NCBI RefSeq assembly: GCF_014645315.1
Contig: NZ_BMLQ01000003.1
Coordinates: 185,804-249,803, forward strand
Length of the DNA: 64,000 bases
Direction: 5' to 3'
Origin: Citricoccus zhacaiensis
GTDB taxonomy: Bacteria; Actinomycetota; Actinomycetes; Actinomycetales; Micrococcaceae
Below the pieces are notes generated by a model. That model did not search any database, was not told where the DNA came from, and was given only the letters and a program-made list of their open reading frames with translations. Below are positions 8,316-44,415 of the stretch, piece by piece; position 1 is the first letter of the stretch; each line of letters opens with the position of its first letter. The translations under genes and the position numbers were made by a program.

Positions 8316-9676
8316 CGAAGGGCCTCCTGGAGGTCTGCGGACGGGGTCGTCTGTGCTGGGGTGCCGGCGGCAGCATCGGCGGCGGGGTCGAAGGTCGCGT
8401 GGCTGCCGGGCGTCCCGAATTCCTGGAAGGCGATCCGGCGCTCCACCACGTAGTGCTCGCGACCGCACAGGCGGTTGACGAGCACGGAATTGCGGTAGGC
8501 GCCCATCCCCAGGTCCGGCGCCGTGAACCCGTGGGTGTGCAGTTCGGCATTCTGGACGAACACGTCGCCGTGCCGGCTGATCCCGTAGCCACGGTCCACG
8601 TCCCAGCGCCCGTCCGGGAGGCGGGACAACCGTTCCTCGACACCGGCCATGAAGTCCGGCTGACGGTAGCCATAGCCGGTGGCCAGGACGACGGCGTCGA
8701 CCTCGGCCTCCTGGAGCCCGCCGTCCTCGCCGTGGCGCAGGGACAACACCAACCGGCCGGTGCTCTCGCGGATGCCTTCGAGCGCGGTGGCCGTCCGTAG
8801 GGTGGCCGGGGAGGGGCCGTCCACGCTGGCCGCGTAGAGGCGGTCGTAGATGCTGTTCAGCAGGTCCGCGTTGACACCCTTGTACAGGCCATGATGCTCC
8901 GCGCCGAGGCGGTCCCGGACGGATTGCGGCAGGGCGGTGAAATGGTCGATGTAGTCCGGGGACGTCATCTCCAGGGTCGGCTTGGTGTACTCGAGCGGGA
9001 AGAACCGGGGGGACCGGGTCAGCCACTCCACGTGTCGGTGTTCGCCGGCTCCGGCCAGCAGGTCGTCGAAGACCTCGGCGGCGCTCTGCCCGCTGCCCAC
9101 GACCGCGATCCGCTCGGCCGCCAGCAGTCGTTCCCGGGCGGGCAGATAGCTGGAGGAATGGACAACGCGCGGGTCGGAGCGCAAGGTGCCGGGGACGGCG
9201 TCGGGCATCCGGGGTTCGGTGCCGGTGCCCAGGACGAGGTTTCGTGCGGCCAGGGTGCGCGGGCCGTCCGGGGTGTGGGCGGTGACGCGGTAGGCCGTGC
9301 CGTCATGGCGGATGTCCGTCACCCGGTGCCCGTACCGGACCGGCAGCTGCTCGGCGGCCCAGGCGAGGTACTTCGCGTACTCGGCGCGCAGGGCGTAGAA
9401 GTCCTCGCGGATGTAGAAGGGATAGATGCGTCCGGCGTCCTTGAGGAAGGCCAGGAAGGAGAGGGGATGGGTGGGGTCGGCCAGGGTGACCAGGTCGGCG
9501 AGGAACGGCACCTGCAGGTGTGTGCCCGCCAGCATCATCCCGGGGTGCCATTGGGGTGCGTCCCGCCCCTCGAGGACCACGACGTCCAGACCGGCAGGGC
9601 CGGCCAGGGCGGCGAAACCCAGGTTGAACGGTCCGGCGCCGATCGCGATGGCGTCGTGGACGATGGTCGCGCTCAT
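8312..9676 (-). CDS. desB: Lysine/cadaverine N-monooxygenase (DesB-type)
   Basis: This 454-residue flavin-dependent N-hydroxylating monooxygenase probably hydroxylates the cadaverine made by the preceding decarboxylase. The FAD motif AIGAGPFNLG is at about residues 11-20, an NADPH-binding VVGSGQSAAEV near residue 195, and the C-terminal ATGYGYRQPDF is typical of the family (IucD, PvdA, DesB). It overlaps its neighbours by 4 nt at both ends, showing a tightly coupled operon under the iron box before desA. Direct action on lysine (aerobactin route) is possible, but the adjacent decarboxylase favours cadaverine. Confidence 0.9.
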   Translation of the reverse strand: MSATIVHDAIAIGAGPFNLGFAALAGPAGLDVVVLEGRDAPQWHPGMMLAGTHLQVPFLADLVTLADPTHPLSFLAFLKDAGRIYPFYIREDFYALRAEYAKYLAWAAEQLPVRYGHRVTDIRHDGTAYRVTAHTPDGPRTLAARNLVLGTGTEPRMPDAVPGTLRSDPRVVHSSSYLPARERLLAAERIAVVGSGQSAAEVFDDLLAGAGEHRHVEWLTRSPRFFPLEYTKPTLEMTSPDYIDHFTALPQSVRDRLGAEHHGLYKGVNADLLNSIYDRLYAASVDGPSPATLRTATALEGIRESTGRLVLSLRHGEDGGLQEAEVDAVVLATGYGYRQPDFMAGVEERLSRLPDGRWDVDRGYGISRHGDVFVQNAELHTHGFTAPDLGMGAYRNSVLVNRLCGREHYVVERRIAFQEFGTPGSHATFDPAADAAAGTPAQTTPSADLQEALR

Positions 9677-11250
9677 GCGGCCACCTCCGATCCGGCCACG
9701 GCACGCCCATGCCGGACCACAGCCTCCAGAATGGCCCGGACGTCGGCCACGGTGGTGCGCGGGTTGAGCAGGGTCAGCTTCAGGTGACGCCGGCCGGCGA
9801 CGGTGGTGGCGGCGACCATGGTCTCGCCGGAGCGGTACAGCGAGCGCCGGAGGGCATCCTGCAGCCGGTCCACGGCCACGCCGTCCGCCCCAGGTCCCCA
9901 TCCCGGATCGAACCGGAACACCACGGTTCCGAGCTGGACCGGGGCGGCGAGCGCGAGCTGCTCGGTGTCTTCCACCAGCCGGCCCGCCTCGGCGGCCAGT
10001 TCCAGGGTGGCGTCGAAGAGCCGGCCGAGGACGTCGGAGCCCAGGGACCGCAGGGTCACCCACAGTTTCAGGGCATCGAAGCGCCGGGTGGTCTGCAGCG
10101 ACTTGTCCACCTGGTTGGGGCTGTCCGGATCCTGGTCCGGGTTGAGGTAGTCGGCGTGGTGCGTGATGTGGGCGAACCGGTTGCCCTCGGCCACCAGCAG
10201 CGCACTCGAGCCGATGGGCTGGAAGAACGACTTGTGGAAGTCCACGGTCACGGAGTCGGCCTGTTCGATCCCCGCGAGCCAGTGCCGGCGGGTGGGGGAG
10301 GCGAGCAGTCCGCAGCCGTAGGCGGCGTCAACGTGGAACCAGGCACCGTTCCTCCGGGCCGTCGAGGCGAGATCGTCCAGGGGGTCGATGGACCCGAAGT
10401 CCGTGGTGCCGGCCGTGGCGACGACGGCCAGGGCGCGCAGTCCCCGCGCCGCGTCCTCGCCCATGGCCCGTTCCAGGGCCACCTGGTCCATGCGGTGGTT
10501 CCGGTCCACGGGGATCGGGACGACTGCCTCCTCACCCAGACCGAGGTGGACGGCGGACCGTACGATGCTGAAGTGGCTGTCCTGGGAGGCGTAGATCCGC
10601 CAGCCGGTCAGTCGCTCCGGGAGGGAGCCGGTGCCGGGCGAGACGGCACGGTTGCGGGCCATCAGCAGGGCTTGCAGGTTCGACTGGGTGCCGCCGCTGG
10701 TGAAGATCCCGTCCGCGGCCGGCCCCAGTCCGGCCAGGTCGGCGGCCCACCGCACCAGTCGCCGCTCGATCAGGGTGGCGCCGGCCGACTGGTCCCAAGT
10801 GTCCATGGAGGTGTTGATGCTCGTGACCAGCGCCTCCGCGGCCACAGCCGGCAGTGCCACCGGGCAGTTCAGGTGGGCGGCGTACCGGGGATGGTGGAAG
10901 TACACCGCGTCGTCCAGGTAGAGCGAGGACGCCTCGGCCAACGCGGCCTCGGTCGAGCCGAGTGGTGCCGCGAGGTCGATGGCCGAGACGGACTCCTGCA
11001 GGTCAGCCGGGTCCGGTCCCGTCGTCGGCGACTGCGCCCGGACGATTGCCGCGGCGGCCAGCAGGGCCGCGGTCCCGGTGTCCTGCACGAAGCGGTGCGC
11101 GTTGTCGGCGGAGAGGAGGGCGGAGGCCGCCGCCGGGTGCCGTAGGGCGAGGCTGTCCGGGGCCTGCATCGGGCTGGTGCGGCTGTTCGGGCCGGTCTGA
11201 CCGGTCGGATCCGCCAGAGCCATCTGCTCGGTGGAGCTGGGGGCTGTCAT
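9673..11250 (-). CDS. desA: PLP-dependent lysine decarboxylase (DesA-type), first siderophore gene
   Basis: This 525-residue group II pyridoxal-phosphate decarboxylase probably makes cadaverine from lysine. The PLP lysine is in DFHKSFFQP near residue 330, with the upstream cofactor-binding segments SGGTQSNLQ and HVDAAYG. The length fits DesA-type and diaminobutyrate decarboxylases (about 480-530). The ATG at 11250 has AAGGGA upstream, and a DtxR/IdeR box sits 17-35 bp before it, so expression is expected only when iron is scarce. The stop overlaps desB. Decarboxylation of diaminobutyrate or ornithine cannot be excluded from sequence alone. Confidence 0.88.
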   Translation of the reverse strand: MTAPSSTEQMALADPTGQTGPNSRTSPMQAPDSLALRHPAAASALLSADNAHRFVQDTGTAALLAAAAIVRAQSPTTGPDPADLQESVSAIDLAAPLGSTEAALAEASSLYLDDAVYFHHPRYAAHLNCPVALPAVAAEALVTSINTSMDTWDQSAGATLIERRLVRWAADLAGLGPAADGIFTSGGTQSNLQALLMARNRAVSPGTGSLPERLTGWRIYASQDSHFSIVRSAVHLGLGEEAVVPIPVDRNHRMDQVALERAMGEDAARGLRALAVVATAGTTDFGSIDPLDDLASTARRNGAWFHVDAAYGCGLLASPTRRHWLAGIEQADSVTVDFHKSFFQPIGSSALLVAEGNRFAHITHHADYLNPDQDPDSPNQVDKSLQTTRRFDALKLWVTLRSLGSDVLGRLFDATLELAAEAGRLVEDTEQLALAAPVQLGTVVFRFDPGWGPGADGVAVDRLQDALRRSLYRSGETMVAATTVAGRRHLKLTLLNPRTTVADVRAILEAVVRHGRAVAGSEVAA

Positions 11251-11266
11251 ACTGTCCCTTCGTTGA

Positions 11267-11285
11267 TGAGGTTAGCCTTACCTAA
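11267..11285. promoter_or_regulatory. DtxR/IdeR iron box before desA
   Basis: The 19-bp sequence TGAGGTTAGCCTTACCTAA agrees at 16 of 19 positions with the DtxR/IdeR consensus TTAGGTTAGCCTAACCTAA or one or two more depending on how the ends are aligned. It ends 17 bp before the desA start, where a bound repressor would block initiation or early elongation. Confidence 0.85.
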
Positions 11286-11410
11286 CCGGCGTCCATTAAA
11301 CGCACAGGGATGGGTCGTAATTCAACTGGACCTTTGGTCAATGGCGAGTCCAACAACTCCGCCACGGAGGGTGTGTGCTGGGCCACCGTCCTGTTAGGGT
11401 GGAGATGATT

Positions 11411-40103: not shown

Positions 40104-41321
40104 ATGAGCGAGAGCACGAGCAACAGCACCACGCCGCTGCACGGCGTCCACGTGGAGGCCGGCGCCTCCTTCACCGACTTCGGCGGCTGGCAGATGCCCC
40201 TGAAGTACGGCTCGGAGCTGGCCGAGCACCAGGCCGTCCGCACCTCCGCCGGCCTGTTCGACCTGTCCCACATGGGTGAGGTCCGAATCACCGGCCCGCA
40301 GTCGGCCGAGGCGCTGGACTACGCCCTGACGGCCCGGGTGTCCGCGGTGGCCCCGGGCCGCGCCAAGTACTCGCTGATCTGCACCGAGTCCGGGACCATC
40401 CTGGACGACCTGATCGTCTACCGGCTGGACGACGGCGGTGACGGCGCGGTCGAACAGGAGGCGCGTGAGTTCCTCGTGGTGCCCAATGCCGGCAACGCCG
40501 CGGCCGTGGCGGCCGCGCTGACGGAGCGCTCCGCCCGCTTTGATGCCACGGTCCGCAACGAGTCCTCACAGACGGCACTGGTCGCCGTGCAGGGCCCGGA
40601 GGCCGCCCGGATCCTCGCCGCCGTCCTTCCCGAGGCAGAAGCCGCCGAGCTGGACGGGATGGGGTACTACTCCGCCCGTCCGGCCACCATCCGGGCCGGT
40701 GGGGAGACCGGTGACGTGACCGTCCTGGCCGCCCGCACCGGGTATACCGGGGAGGACGGCTTCGAGCTGATCATCGGCCCCGTGGCGGACCGTGGGGTGT
40801 TGTCCACCGCGGCCACCGCGGTCTGGCACACGCTCCTCGGAGCCGCGGAGGGCCTCGGCGTCGACCTGCTCCCGTGCGGGCTGGCCAGCCGCGATTCCCT
40901 GCGCCTGGAGGCCGGCATGCCGCTCTACGGCAACGAGCTCGACCTCGGCCATCTGCCCAGCGAGTCGGGGGCCGGCAACGCGGTACCGCTCAAGAGCAAG
41001 GAAAGCGACTTCATCGGCCGAGACGCCCTGCTGGCCGCCCGCGAGGCCGGCACCGGCATCACCACCGGTCAGACGATCGTCGCGTTGAAGGGCACCGGCC
41101 GGCGGGCGGCGCGGACCGGGTACCCCGTGCTGGACGGCGGCGGCCACCGGATCGGCGAGGTCACCTCCGGGGTCCCCAGCCCCACGCTGGGTCACCCGAT
41201 CGCCCTGGCCCGCATCGACGTGGCGTTCAAGGACATCGGCACCGAGCTCTCCGTGGACCTGCGCGGCAAGGCCGAGCCGTTCACCGTGGTGGAACCGCCG
41301 TTCTACCGCCGCGCCCAGTAG
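40104..41321 (+). CDS. gcvT: Aminomethyltransferase, T protein of the glycine cleavage system
   Basis: This 405-residue folate-dependent enzyme transfers the methylene group to tetrahydrofolate and releases ammonia. Diagnostic segments are FGGWQMPLKYGSELAEHQAV near residue 25, LFDLSHMGEVRITGP, YTGEDGFELII near 215 and GLASRDSLRLEAGMPLYGNEL near 260. It follows gcvP by 11 bp. No gcvH lies in the window, so the H protein must be encoded elsewhere. Sarcosine and glycine made by the creatinine module at the right end could feed this system. Confidence 0.95.
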   Translation: MSESTSNSTTPLHGVHVEAGASFTDFGGWQMPLKYGSELAEHQAVRTSAGLFDLSHMGEVRITGPQSAEALDYALTARVSAVAPGRAKYSLICTESGTILDDLIVYRLDDGGDGAVEQEAREFLVVPNAGNAAAVAAALTERSARFDATVRNESSQTALVAVQGPEAARILAAVLPEAEAAELDGMGYYSARPATIRAGGETGDVTVLAARTGYTGEDGFELIIGPVADRGVLSTAATAVWHTLLGAAEGLGVDLLPCGLASRDSLRLEAGMPLYGNELDLGHLPSESGAGNAVPLKSKESDFIGRDALLAAREAGTGITTGQTIVALKGTGRRAARTGYPVLDGGGHRIGEVTSGVPSPTLGHPIALARIDVAFKDIGTELSVDLRGKAEPFTVVEPPFYRRAQ

Positions 41322-41496: not shown

Positions 41497-42618
41497 ATGA
41501 CAGAACAGCGAACAGCCCGGCGGGTCCCCGTACTGGGCATCATCGCGTTCGTCCTGCTCGCGGCGCTGCTGCTGACCCTGGCCGTGTTGAGCGCCATCAA
41601 GGGTGTGCGCACCGCCGCATCCAACGGCAACGTGGTGCGCGTGGAGGACGGCCGGACCTTCGTGGTGAACATGGATGGAACCGAGGAGACCGTGACGTTG
41701 GCCGGCGTGCTGGTTCCCCGACCTGTGGGCGAAGGGCAGGAGCCCACGGCGGAGAACTGCCTCGCGGACGAGGCCATGGCGAACCTGGCGGCCCTTCTCG
41801 AGCCGGGAGACTCTGTCCAGTTGGAGTATCCGGAGGAGTCGGACGGCCCCGAGGGCACCCGGCTGGCCCTGGTCCACCACGGGGGCGAGGTCGTCAACCT
41901 CCAGCAGGCCGAGGCCGGGTTCGCCGTGCCGCTGCCCGAGCAGCCGAGGGAAGGGTTCGGCAGCGAATTGCGGGAGGCCCAGGAGACGGCGCGCAGCGAG
42001 GAGTCCGGACTGTACTCCTCGGCCGCGCCGTGCACCCTGGCCGGCCGGATCGGCCCCGCGCTGACTGCCTTGGAGGACCTGCCGGAGGACCGTCCCGCGA
42101 CCTCTGCCGAGGCCGAGACCCAGATCGAGACGATCTCGGCCGCCGTCGAGCAGGGCGTGGCCGCGGAGAAGGCCTTCGCCACCATCGATCCCGAGGAGAC
42201 CTCCCTGGCCTCGCTCGCCTGGGCCGCGGACGTGCCCCGGCTGCAGGAGAAGCTGACGGGCGCCCTGTCCGCCGCGCAGGCCGAACTGAAAGCACTGGAC
42301 GGCACACGCAACGTGCTGGAGACCCGTGAGCGGGAGGAACTCGAACGCCAGGCCGAGGAGAAACGGCAGGCTGAGGCGAAGCGCCAGCGCGAGGCGGCTG
42401 AACGTCAGGCGGAGGCGCAGCGCGAGAAGGCCCAGCGTGAGGAGGCTGAGCGCGAGGAGGCCCAACGTCAAGCCAAGGAAGAACAGCGCCAGGCCGAGGA
42501 GTCGGCATCCGCTTCTGCGTCTGCCTCTGCTTCCCCGTCTCCGTCGTCGTCACCGTCGCCGACTTCCAGTTCGGCCTCTCCGTCCTCCACGGACACCGAC
42601 GCCGGCGGAGACGACTAG
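41497..42618 (+). CDS. Membrane-anchored protein with SNase-like domain and long coiled-coil tail
   Basis: In this 373-residue protein, one N-terminal membrane helix (about 10-35, GIIAFVLLAALLLTLAVLSA) is followed by a domain with the outline of staphylococcal nuclease/thermonuclease (VRVEDGRTFVVNMDG, TLAGVLVPRP, LLEPGDSVQLEYPEE, EVVNLQQAEAGFA). The usual catalytic Arg and Asp positions are not evident, so it is probably inactive. A charged coiled coil of Glu/Arg/Gln/Ala (about 280-335) and a Ser/Pro/Ala-rich tail follow. AGGAAG precedes the ATG at 41497. It ends 18 bp before umuD and may be cotranscribed with it. Confidence 0.6.
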   Translation: MTEQRTARRVPVLGIIAFVLLAALLLTLAVLSAIKGVRTAASNGNVVRVEDGRTFVVNMDGTEETVTLAGVLVPRPVGEGQEPTAENCLADEAMANLAALLEPGDSVQLEYPEESDGPEGTRLALVHHGGEVVNLQQAEAGFAVPLPEQPREGFGSELREAQETARSEESGLYSSAAPCTLAGRIGPALTALEDLPEDRPATSAEAETQIETISAAVEQGVAAEKAFATIDPEETSLASLAWAADVPRLQEKLTGALSAAQAELKALDGTRNVLETREREELERQAEEKRQAEAKRQREAAERQAEAQREKAQREEAEREEAQRQAKEEQRQAEESASASASASASPSPSSSPSPTSSSASPSSTDTDAGGDD

Positions 42619-42636: not shown

Positions 42637-43065
42637 ATGACCATCACGCCCCCACCCGCGGACGGGCCGGAGCCGACGTCGGCCGCTGGGCAGGCGCCCC
42701 GCGCCCACGGTTTTCCCTCTCCCGCGCGGGACTATCTGGACGGCGGGATCGACCTGAACCGGGAGCTCGTCCGGGACCGAACCTCGACGTTCCTGATGCG
42801 GGTGTCCGGGCAGGCCATGGTGGGTTCCGGCATCGGAGACGGGGACGAGCTGGTCGTGGACCGGGCGGCCACGCCGCAGGACGGCTCGGTGGTGGTGGCC
42901 GTGGTCAACGGAGAACTCCTGGTGCGGCGGCTGGTCCTCGGGACCGCAGGGGGCCGGCGTACCGTGACCCTGCAGACCGACGACGGGGCGGCGCCCCTCA
43001 CGGTGGAGGATGTGGATGCCCTGGAGATCTGGGGCGTGGCCACCTACTGCCTGCACCGCCTGTGA
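42637..43065 (+). CDS. umuD: UmuD-like protein lacking both catalytic residues
   Basis: This 142-residue protein is a homologue of UmuD, the SOS-induced partner of the UmuC polymerase, which normally cleaves itself with a Ser/Lys dyad. It aligns with E. coli UmuD without gaps through the first 97 residues: GFPSPARDYLDGGIDLN, SGQAM and GDGDELVVD are clear. But position 60 is Ala (GCC at 42814-42816) where catalytic Ser is expected, and position 97 is Arg (CGG at 42925-42927) instead of Lys. The cleavage-site Cys24 is His, with Gly25 kept. It lies 39 bp before umuC. No LexA box was seen upstream. Confidence 0.85.
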   Translation: MTITPPPADGPEPTSAAGQAPRAHGFPSPARDYLDGGIDLNRELVRDRTSTFLMRVSGQAMVGSGIGDGDELVVDRAATPQDGSVVVAVVNGELLVRRLVLGTAGGRRTVTLQTDDGAAPLTVEDVDALEIWGVATYCLHRL

Positions 43066-43104
43066 GCGTACGGTGAGGCCCACGGTTGAAACAGGAAGGG
43101 CGAT

Positions 43105-44415
43105 GTGGTGACTGATCACCTGGCTTTGGTGGACGTCAACAACTTCTACGTCTCCTGCGAACGGGCCTTCGATCCCGGGTTGGAGAACCGGCCGGTGGTG
43201 GTGCTGTCCAACAACGACGGCTGCGTGGTGGCGCGGTCTCCGGAGGCGAAGGCCCTGGGACTCAAGACCGGGATGCCGTGGTTCCAGCTCGCCCCGCAGG
43301 CCGCCTCCTGGGGACTCGTGGCGCGTTCCTCCAACTACGAGCTCTACGGGGACATGTCCGCCCGTGTGATGGAGCTGCTGGGCCGTTGGGGCACCAGGCA
43401 GCAGGTGTACTCGATCGACGAGTGCTTCATCGGGTTGACCGGCACCCCGCAGCAGGCTCTGCAGGCCGGGCGAGAGGCCCGGGCGGCGGTGGCCCGGCAC
43501 CTCGGGCTCCCGGTGTGCGTGGGGATCGCCGCGACCAAGACTCTGGCAAAGTTCGCCAACCACGTGGCCAAGAACAACCCGGACGACGCCAGAATCGGAG
43601 GAGTCTTCTCCATGGACGCGGCCCGGACCACCTTTGTCGACCGGTTGATGGAGCGGCTCCCGGCCACCGAGGTTTGGGGTGTGGGCCGCAAATCAGGGGA
43701 GAAGCTGGAACGCCTGGGGATCCGGAGCATCGCTGACCTGCGTTCCGCCGACCCCGCGTGGATCCGGTCCCGGTTCTCCGTGGTGCTGGAACGGACTGTC
43801 CTGGAACTGGGCGGGGTGCCGTGCGTTCCGGACGTGGACGAGCAGGCGGGCCCGGCCCAGGTCATCTTCTCGCGCTCCTTCTCCAGGCCGGTGACGACCG
43901 GCGCGGACATGGACGATGTCATGAACCTCTACGCCCAGCGCGCCGCAGCCCGCTTGGCAGTGCAGGGTCAGCAGGCCAGGACCGTGCTGGTCACGGCCGG
44001 GACCTCCCGGTTCTCCGGGCCCGATGGATCGGTCTCCAGGTCAGTGGCCCTTCCGCGTGCCACTGCCGACCCGATTGCCATCACCCGGGCCGCTGTGGCG
44101 GCGATGCGGTCCGTGCTGCGCGAGGGAGTGCCCTACACCCGCGCCGGCGTCATGCTGTCGGGTTTGGGACCGGCGGGAACGGGGCAGGAGATGCTGACCG
44201 GGTTCGAGGACATCGAGGGGCCAGACGGATCCGACGGCGGCCCCGACCGGCATCTGGAGGACGTCCTGGAGCGTGTCCGCGGGCGGTTCGGCGGAACCTC
44301 GATCGGCCTCGGGCCTGGAGGTCTGGCCGAGCAGGGGACGTGGACCATGCGCCGTGAGTTCGCCTCGCCGCAGTACACCACGAGGTTCTCGGAGCTGCCC
44401 GTGGTCCGGGCCTGA
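43105..44415 (+). CDS. umuC: Y-family DNA polymerase UmuC
   Basis: This 436-residue protein is the catalytic subunit of a pol V-type translesion polymerase. The palm motifs [13 protein letters not shown] (residues 8-20) and [12 protein letters not shown] (near residue 101) carry the metal-binding acidic residues. [17 protein letters not shown] lies near residue 140, and a helix-hairpin-helix segment ([17 protein letters not shown]) near 190. A little-finger domain and C-terminal UmuD-binding tail follow. Two consecutive GTG codons begin the frame after AGGAAGG. All catalytic residues look intact, unlike its UmuD partner. It converges on a response regulator, with 7 bp between stops. Confidence 0.94.

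What the first reader, a model, noticed from the sequence alone, without database searches (positions are those of the whole stretch)
42637..44415. UmuD homologue that has lost both self-cleavage residues, paired with an intact UmuC
The protein aligns without gaps to E. coli UmuD over its first 97 residues. The catalytic Ser60 is Ala (codon GCC at 42814) and the catalytic Lys97 is Arg (CGG at 42925); Cys24 at the cleavage site is His. UmuC keeps its acidic palm residues. In E. coli, pol V needs the cleaved form UmuD'. A dead UmuD would have to work uncleaved, be cleaved in trans, or act as a permanent inhibitor. Loss of both residues makes a sequencing error unlikely. No LexA box was seen, so control may also differ.
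Basis: partly seen in the sequence, partly recalled or inferred. Interest (0 to 1): 0.8.

Follow-up and report, generated by a model that had tools for sequence, protein, structure and literature searches.

The report
UmuD that lost its self-cleavage dyad
In a soil bacterium (Citricoccus) the helper protein of a mutation-making DNA polymerase lacks the two residues with which such helpers normally cut and switch themselves on, and its relatives show that this switch was dismantled repeatedly, which suggests that the polymerase works there without it.

Summary
The window's UmuD (42637-43065) has Ala60, Arg97, His at the cleavage position and no lysine at all, beside a UmuC with intact acidic residues. 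It is no sequencing error: 7 of 8 Citricoccus genomes share the triple change, the core is under purifying selection, and the eighth genome lacks both genes cleanly. Nor is it isolated. Of 180 distinct UmuD sequences (140 from this family), 86 have Arg97 and 94 Lys97. Arg97 proteins have lost the cleavage signature (Ala/Cys at P1 in 12 of 86, against 92 of 94), and 31 of 86 have also lost Ser60 (1 of 94 with Lys97). Trees give at least 4-5 changes at 97 and 7-10 at 60. Of other Arg97 relatives, 52 of 77 keep a LexA-box-like site before umuD; Citricoccus 0 of 7. Best reading: a recurrently evolved, non-self-cleaving UmuD that serves UmuC uncleaved, as a ready-made UmuD'. Lack of cleavage and polymerase activity are inferred, not measured. 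This genome has two more umuDC pairs with intact dyads, but such copies were found in only 3 of the 7 Citricoccus, so cleavage in trans cannot be the general answer.

The parts
42637..43065 (+). umuD-like gene, 142 aa, H24|G25, A60, R97, no lysine
42637..42708 (+). N-terminal arm (residues 1-24), proline-rich, faster-evolving than the core, low model confidence (pLDDT mostly under 50), no cleavage signature
42706..42708 (+). codon CAC, His24 at the P1 position of the would-be cleavage site
   Evidence: alignments
42709..42759 (+). GFPSPARDYLDGGIDLN segment, conserved also in relatives without the dyad; corresponds to the free arm of UmuD'
   Evidence: role of that arm in E. coli pol V from PMC12926913, passages
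42814..42816 (+). codon GCC, Ala60 in place of the catalytic Ser
42925..42927 (+). codon CGG, Arg97 in place of the catalytic Lys
43105..44415 (+). umuC, 436 aa, acidic palm residues D, DE present, C-terminal DUF4113 present
41497..42618 (+). upstream gene (one hydrophobic segment near its start and a charged, Ser-rich tail, both by eye), stop 18 nt before umuD; next to umuD in all 7 Citricoccus that carry umuDC; function unknown, may supply the promoter

Best explanation
This UmuD is a pseudo-protease: it cannot cut itself and acts as a permanent, structural UmuD'-like subunit of UmuC (pol V), in its full-length form with a loose tail in front of the conserved GFPSP arm. Shown: both catalytic residues and the cleavage signature are gone, in all 7 Citricoccus that have the gene and recurrently in the family; the core and UmuC remain under purifying selection while the tail is freer; one species lacks the pair as a unit. 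Inferred: no cleavage occurs, UmuC is active with the uncleaved protein, and control has shifted from cleavage to transcription (LexA in most relatives, an upstream operon in Citricoccus) and perhaps to protein turnover. Likely order, inferred from the state counts: Lys97 to Arg first, decay of the cleavage site, then Ser60 to Ala or Gly.
For: State counts in 180 distinct sequences: S60/K97 93, S60/R97 55, A60/R97 26, G60/R97 5, A60/K97 1. P1 is Ala/Cys in 92 of 94 K97 and 12 of 86 R97; P3 is Val/Ile/Leu in 91 of 94 and 11 of 86. Arm residues -8 to -1 share on average 37 and 46% identity between K97 proteins at 55-65 and 65-75% core identity, but 16 and 17% between R97 proteins. Fewest changes at position 97: 4 on the UmuD tree, 5 on the UmuC tree; one clade of the 62 R97 partners is rejected on the UmuC tree, p-AU 0.00025. 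Ser60 loss: at least 10 and 7 changes. Among UmuC found adjacent, D, DE are kept in 20 of 21 A60/R97 (the other has a gap at the first), 38 of 38 S60/R97 and 4 of 4 G60/R97. Citricoccus dN/dS over 21 pairs (ratios taken): core 0.05-0.40, UmuC 0.07-0.29, arm 0.14-1.14 with one pair undefined. R97 UmuD is the only UmuD match at E 1e-20 in 58 of 78 genomes, S60-less R97 in 20 of 26 (using match numbers copied by hand, where at most 10 candidates a genome were scored). One relative (Arthrobacter sp. GMC3, L090/L212) starts MFGLDNPARDYF, nearly without tail. G003 lacks both umuD and umuC between the same neighbours.
Against: In E. coli, UmuD K97A blocks pol V mutagenesis and keeps UmuC at the membrane (PMC4552617, passages), and S60A lowers UV mutagenesis (PMC3901139, passages); so 'works uncleaved' needs a changed relation of tail and UmuC that was not tested. 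A tail is still there in all 7 Citricoccus (14-26 residues by possible start codons); if useless it should be lost more often, and only one near-tailless relative was noticed. Fifty-five of 86 R97 proteins keep Ser60, so some may retain a slow Ser-Arg activity. Two R97 proteins of Bacteroidales keep a VHA|G site (L127, L143). One K97 protein lost Ser60 (L124). The independent-pairs test of Ser60 loss against Arg97 on the UmuC tree has too few pairs (5 on starred branches, median p 0.5). The state counts are of related sequences. No expression or biochemical data.
Confidence: 0.6

Rival explanations
1. The dead UmuD is processed by something else: by an active UmuD in trans in strains that have one, or by a housekeeping protease, so that UmuD' is still made.
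For: Own genome has two S60/K97 UmuDs with A|G sites and LexA-box-like sites, 11 of 12. UmuD can cleave between subunits in E. coli (PMC5342242, passages). RAHGFPSP is identical in all 7 Citricoccus, so something keeps this stretch.
Against: Four of 7 Citricoccus with the dead UmuD show no other UmuD; P3/P1 signature lost in most R97 proteins; tail freer than the core.
Confidence: 0.15
2. UmuD and UmuC now form only the UmuD2C-type complex: a damage checkpoint or brake on replication, not a mutagenic polymerase.
For: In E. coli, full-length UmuD with UmuC inhibits replication and prevents mutagenesis (review PMC3901139, passages).
Against: In E. coli the full-length arm holds recognition sites for partner proteins (PMC5342242, passages), and the arm is the part that is least conserved here; UmuC keeps its acidic residues.
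Confidence: 0.14
3. Decay on the way to loss: the system is little used in this family and its regulation is eroding.
For: G003 has neither gene; a LexA-box-like site within 250 nt is found in 0 of 7 Citricoccus; UmuC of G115 is in pieces, one with a TGA.
Against: Low dN/dS of core and UmuC over all 21 Citricoccus pairs; polymerase residues kept in partners; only Lys to Arg and Ser to Ala or Gly were seen.
Confidence: 0.09
4. Arg97 with Ser60 is still a slow self-cleaving enzyme in relatives, and only the A60/G60 members, such as the window's, are truly dead. (This concerns the relatives and can hold together with the best explanation.)
For: 55 of 86 R97 proteins keep Ser60; two Bacteroidales R97 proteins keep P1 Ala and P3 Val. 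Recalled, from no call: LexA Lys-to-Arg variants keep a trace of activity at high pH.
Against: Of 55 S60/R97 proteins only 6 have Ala or Cys at P1, two of them the Bacteroidales ones (counts).
Confidence: 0.2

Closest known systems
E. coli UmuD / UmuD' (pol V, UmuD'2C)
   Same: Sequence, fold (TM-score 0.76-0.83 by target length, 0.59 by query length, to 1ay9, 1umu, 8gmt), gene order umuD-umuC, UmuC with DUF4113 tail
   Different: Ser60, Lys97 and the cleavage signature are absent; arm residues 1-24 unrelated; no LexA-box-like site within 250 nt of umuD in Citricoccus
HumD of phage P1 (made directly in the short UmuD' form; recalled)
   Same: Would work as a ready-made UmuD' without self-cleavage
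   Different: The window protein scores 70 against the HumD cut-off of 120 and keeps a 24-residue tail
UmuDAb of Acinetobacter
   Same: A UmuD relative with a changed role (titles and abstract starts in listings)
   Different: UmuDAb needs its N-terminal domain to repress genes (title); the window protein has only a short tail
Pseudo-proteases such as iRhom; SipA of the signal-peptidase fold
   Same: Protease folds kept after loss of catalytic residues (iRhom: abstract starts; SipA: weak fold match, its lost catalytic residues are recalled)
   Different: Other families and functions

Membership tests
UmuD, pol V subunit (NF007621 / Peptidase_S24) | Family model above curated cut-off | tested here: met
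   118.8 bits against 110; PF00717 58.8 against 23.3
UmuD, pol V subunit (NF007621 / Peptidase_S24) | UmuD' fold | tested here: met
   AlphaFold model (mean pLDDT 74; residues 51-140, 85-94 by blocks of ten) best matches UmuD' in the PDB
UmuD, pol V subunit (NF007621 / Peptidase_S24) | Gene pair with umuC | tested here: met
   UmuC beside it in all 7 Citricoccus with the gene, in G004 cut by the contig end
UmuD, pol V subunit (NF007621 / Peptidase_S24) | Ser60-Lys97 dyad | tested here: not met
   Ala60, Arg97
UmuD, pol V subunit (NF007621 / Peptidase_S24) | Cleavage site with Ala or Cys at P1 and Val, Ile or Leu at P3 | tested here: not met
   R-A-H|G; 92 of 94 (P1) and 91 of 94 (P3) K97 proteins have these
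UmuD, pol V subunit (NF007621 / Peptidase_S24) | LexA control | tested here: inconclusive
   0 of 7 Citricoccus reach 10 of 12 within 250 nt of the umuD arm; control from a promoter before the upstream gene is not excluded
UmuD, pol V subunit (NF007621 / Peptidase_S24) | Activation of UmuC for translesion synthesis | not testable with these tools
   needs experiment
HumD | NF051876 cut-off | tested here: not met
   70 against 120 bits
HumD | Absence of the 24-residue arm (recalled feature) | tested here: not met
   arm present, no in-frame start between 42640 and residue 25
UmuDAb repressor | Extra N-terminal domain | tested here: not met
   about 30 codons between the upstream in-frame stop and residue 25 (open frame 148 aa)

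The most novel reading that the evidence does not exclude
In the Micrococcaceae the proteolytic switch of DNA polymerase V has been dismantled several times independently (Lys97 to Arg, decay of the site, Ser60 to Ala or Gly), giving a natural pol V that is active with uncleaved UmuD and controlled by transcription alone, in Citricoccus not even by a LexA box of its own.
Probability: 0.5. Interest if true: 0.77.

Novelty: new variant of a known kind. Interest (0 to 1): 0.64.

Why it matters
UmuD self-cleavage is the textbook switch from error-avoiding to mutagenic repair. A bacterial family in which the switch was lost repeatedly, while polymerase and subunit stay under selection, is a natural experiment on what the switch is for. 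It predicts mutagenic polymerases that need no RecA-driven cleavage, and it offers uncleaved UmuD-UmuC pairs for study of the assembly. It would also mean that the name 'autoproteolytic subunit' is wrong for many genomes.

Tried and rejected
Sequencing error: rejected, 7 genomes share the changes. General base moved to another lysine: rejected, the protein has none (of the other six Citricoccus proteins five have none and one has a single Lys). Misalignment: rejected, gap-free to 8gmt_B from residue 25, and LexA of the same genome reads Ser/Lys. Wrong start codon hiding the arm: no in-frame ATG/GTG/TTG between 42640 and residue 25. LexA-box-like site at 41290 (TGGAACCGCCGTTCTA): it lies in the end of gcvT (VEPPFY); GAACCGCCGTTC is kept in the window, G006 and G001; in G002, G005 and G007 a GAGCTGCCGTTC with one mismatch was found (whether at the same place was not checked) and in G004 none; taken as coding coincidence, not proven. 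A single origin of Arg97: rejected on the UmuC tree, though exchange between umuD and umuC, or reversal, would look alike.

Limits: the 180 sequences come from hits to the window protein or to an alignment of its relatives, so they are biased to near kin (140 of 180 from the window's family, by code or by name). One search kept the best 80 of 523, and one search listed part of its matches; 115 family genomes with a handle are represented, against 224 that match. Six rows were dropped before counting: three LexA, one truncated (L176), one with an internal stop (L164), one odd second copy (L084). Identical trimmed sequences were counted once; three pairs left differ only before the last 115 residues. 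still held the six rows, so its K97 counts differ; those are used. Only 137 of 186 rows had UmuC adjacent in the stretch held. The LexA-box null used simple, not dinucleotide-keeping, shuffles, 20 per stretch. Both trees are quick ones; the UmuD tree has few columns and many open forks. A two-mismatch scan of the whole window for LexA boxes finds 47 sites against 36 expected, so weak matches mean little.

Papers: nine searches cover open-licence PubMed Central only and several listings were cut (20 of 107, 25 of 67, 15 of 123, 10 of 1,692; the last gave nothing on umuDC). None of the titles and abstract starts seen tells of a UmuD lineage without the dyad. PMC12926913, PMC6511836, PMC4552617, PMC3901139 and PMC5342242 were read in passages only; the others were seen in listings.

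Full report
Observation. The ORF at 42637-43065 encodes a UmuD with His24, Ala60 and Arg97; the E. coli residues are Cys24, Ser60 and Lys97. The alignment with E. coli UmuD begins at residue 25 and is gap-free past 97; the first 24 residues are unrelated and proline-rich. The adjacent UmuC has its acidic residues. The AlphaFold model has low confidence over residues 1-28 (disorder is inferred) and a core whose best PDB matches are UmuD' structures.

Genus. The window lies in a genome of 3.69 Mb in 23 contigs. The genus is taken as Citricoccus: the named contig of Citricoccus sp. CH26A (L067) has the length, 68,721 bases, of the contig of the unnamed same-genus genome G002. Seven of 8 genomes of the genus carry the H24/A60/R97 UmuD. 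The eighth, G003, has neither UmuD nor UmuC at the thresholds used (its only match is LexA); the upstream gene and the response regulator that flank umuDC elsewhere end about 84 nt apart there. Core dN/dS is 0.05-0.40 over all 21 pairs, UmuC 0.07-0.29; the arm is freer, 0.14-1.14 with one pair undefined (ratios). The arm has only 11-24 codons a pair, and distant pairs are near saturation at silent sites.

Second copies. Two further umuDC pairs with A|G cleavage sites, Ser60 and Lys97 lie 35 kb apart on contig C10 and at the same spacing on the 3.74-Mb contig of G006. G001 has one, at a contig end. G002, G004, G005 and G007 show none at E 1e-6: their further rows are the second half of the same gene, or LexA. 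So cleavage in trans is possible in this strain but not general.

Family. Of 395 genomes of the family, 224 match at E 1e-20. From part of these, from 80 named loci and from further stretches, 186 distinct trimmed sequences were collected; after removal of six rows 180 remain: S60/K97 93, S60/R97 55, A60/R97 26, G60/R97 5, A60/K97 1. Of the 86 R97 sequences 83 are from the window's family, two from Bacteroidales and one from Pseudoclavibacter. K97 proteins have Ala or Cys at P1 (92 of 94) and Val, Ile or Leu at P3 (91 of 94); R97 proteins do so in 12 and 11 of 86. At equal core divergence (55-75%) the last eight arm residues are far less alike among R97 proteins. So where Lys97 is Arg, the cleavage site is mostly no longer kept, as expected if the protein does not cut itself. 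Ser60 is lost in 31 of 86 R97 rows and 1 of 94 K97 rows. These rows are related, so the counts are not independent. Trees give at least 4 (UmuD) or 5 (UmuC) changes at 97 and 10 or 7 at 60; one clade of R97 is rejected on the UmuC tree. The formal independent-pairs test has too few pairs to decide.

Control. A LexA-box-like site (at least 10 of 12 positions, within 250 nt) stands before umuD in 51 of 92 S60/K97, 37 of 53 S60/R97, 10 of 26 A60/R97 and 5 of 5 G60/R97; shuffled stretches reach this in under 1%. Of R97 outside Citricoccus it is 52 of 77. So most relatives in the sample seem to stay under SOS transcription control after loss of the cleavage switch. None of the 7 Citricoccus has such a site there (scores 7-9). 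Their umuD starts 18 nt behind another gene in the window, G001 and G006, 9 nt in G002, G004 and G005, and 7 nt (or overlapping) in G007, by the possible start codons. A 10 of 12 match about 300 nt before umuD, inside that gene, has one good half only and is thought chance.

Mechanism. [quoted passage not shown] This segment, GFPSPxxDYxxGGIDLN, is what stays conserved in relatives without the dyad, whereas the part before it drifts. One relative starts nearly at this segment (L090/L212). I therefore infer that the uncleaved protein takes the place of UmuD'. In E. coli the opposite holds: UmuD K97A keeps UmuC at the membrane and inhibits mutagenesis (PMC4552617, passages), and S60A lowers UV mutagenesis (PMC3901139, passages). 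The relation of tail and UmuC must then differ here; a tail without docking residues may simply not mask the arm. The tail might still serve turnover, as the E. coli arm carries the ClpX site (PMC5342242, passages).

Novelty. Nine searches of the open library (listings partly cut) brought up no paper that, by title or abstract start, describes a UmuD lineage without the dyad; subscription journals were not covered. The parts are of known kinds; the repeated dismantling of the switch is the new point. Verdict: real, well supported as sequence evolution, untested as biochemistry.

Noticed in passing
G000 contig C10: L053 (about 8744-10667) and L054 (about 9569-11297): Two more umuDC pairs with intact dyad, 35 kb apart, each with a LexA-box-like site (11 of 12); same spacing in G006, one copy in G001. 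Whether the region is mobile was not tested.
   Followed up: partly
L090 2992-3354; L212 1598-1960 (Arthrobacter sp. GMC3): S60/R97 UmuD that starts MFGLDNPARDYF: the tail before the UmuD' arm is nearly all gone; a UmuC match lies about 24 kb away on the same contig.
   Followed up: partly
genus code g24 (for example G030, G254, G230, G297; L059, L060, L066): R97 umuD and a umuC match are several kb apart on the same contig, or another reading frame (NUDIX-like by eye) stands between them (L060), instead of being neighbours.
   Followed up: partly
L127, L143 (Bacteroidales MAGs): Arg97 with Ser60 and a VHA|G cleavage site: a place to test whether a Ser-Arg dyad still cleaves.
   Followed up: no
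L124 2887-3348 (Propionibacteriaceae MAG): The only K97 UmuD of the sample without Ser60 (Ala60), with Thr at P1: a loss in the other order.
   Followed up: no
L073 / G210 (record named Sporosarcina beigongshangi): A record named as a Bacillota species carries an Arthrobacter-type UmuD; its contig length, 11,643, is that of a contig in a genome of the window's family, so the name looks wrong.
   Followed up: no
window 41497-42618: Upstream gene with a hydrophobic segment and a long charged, Ser-rich tail; no Pfam family above cut-off; next to umuDC in the 7 Citricoccus, with a weaker second match in G003, G004 and G007.
   Followed up: partly
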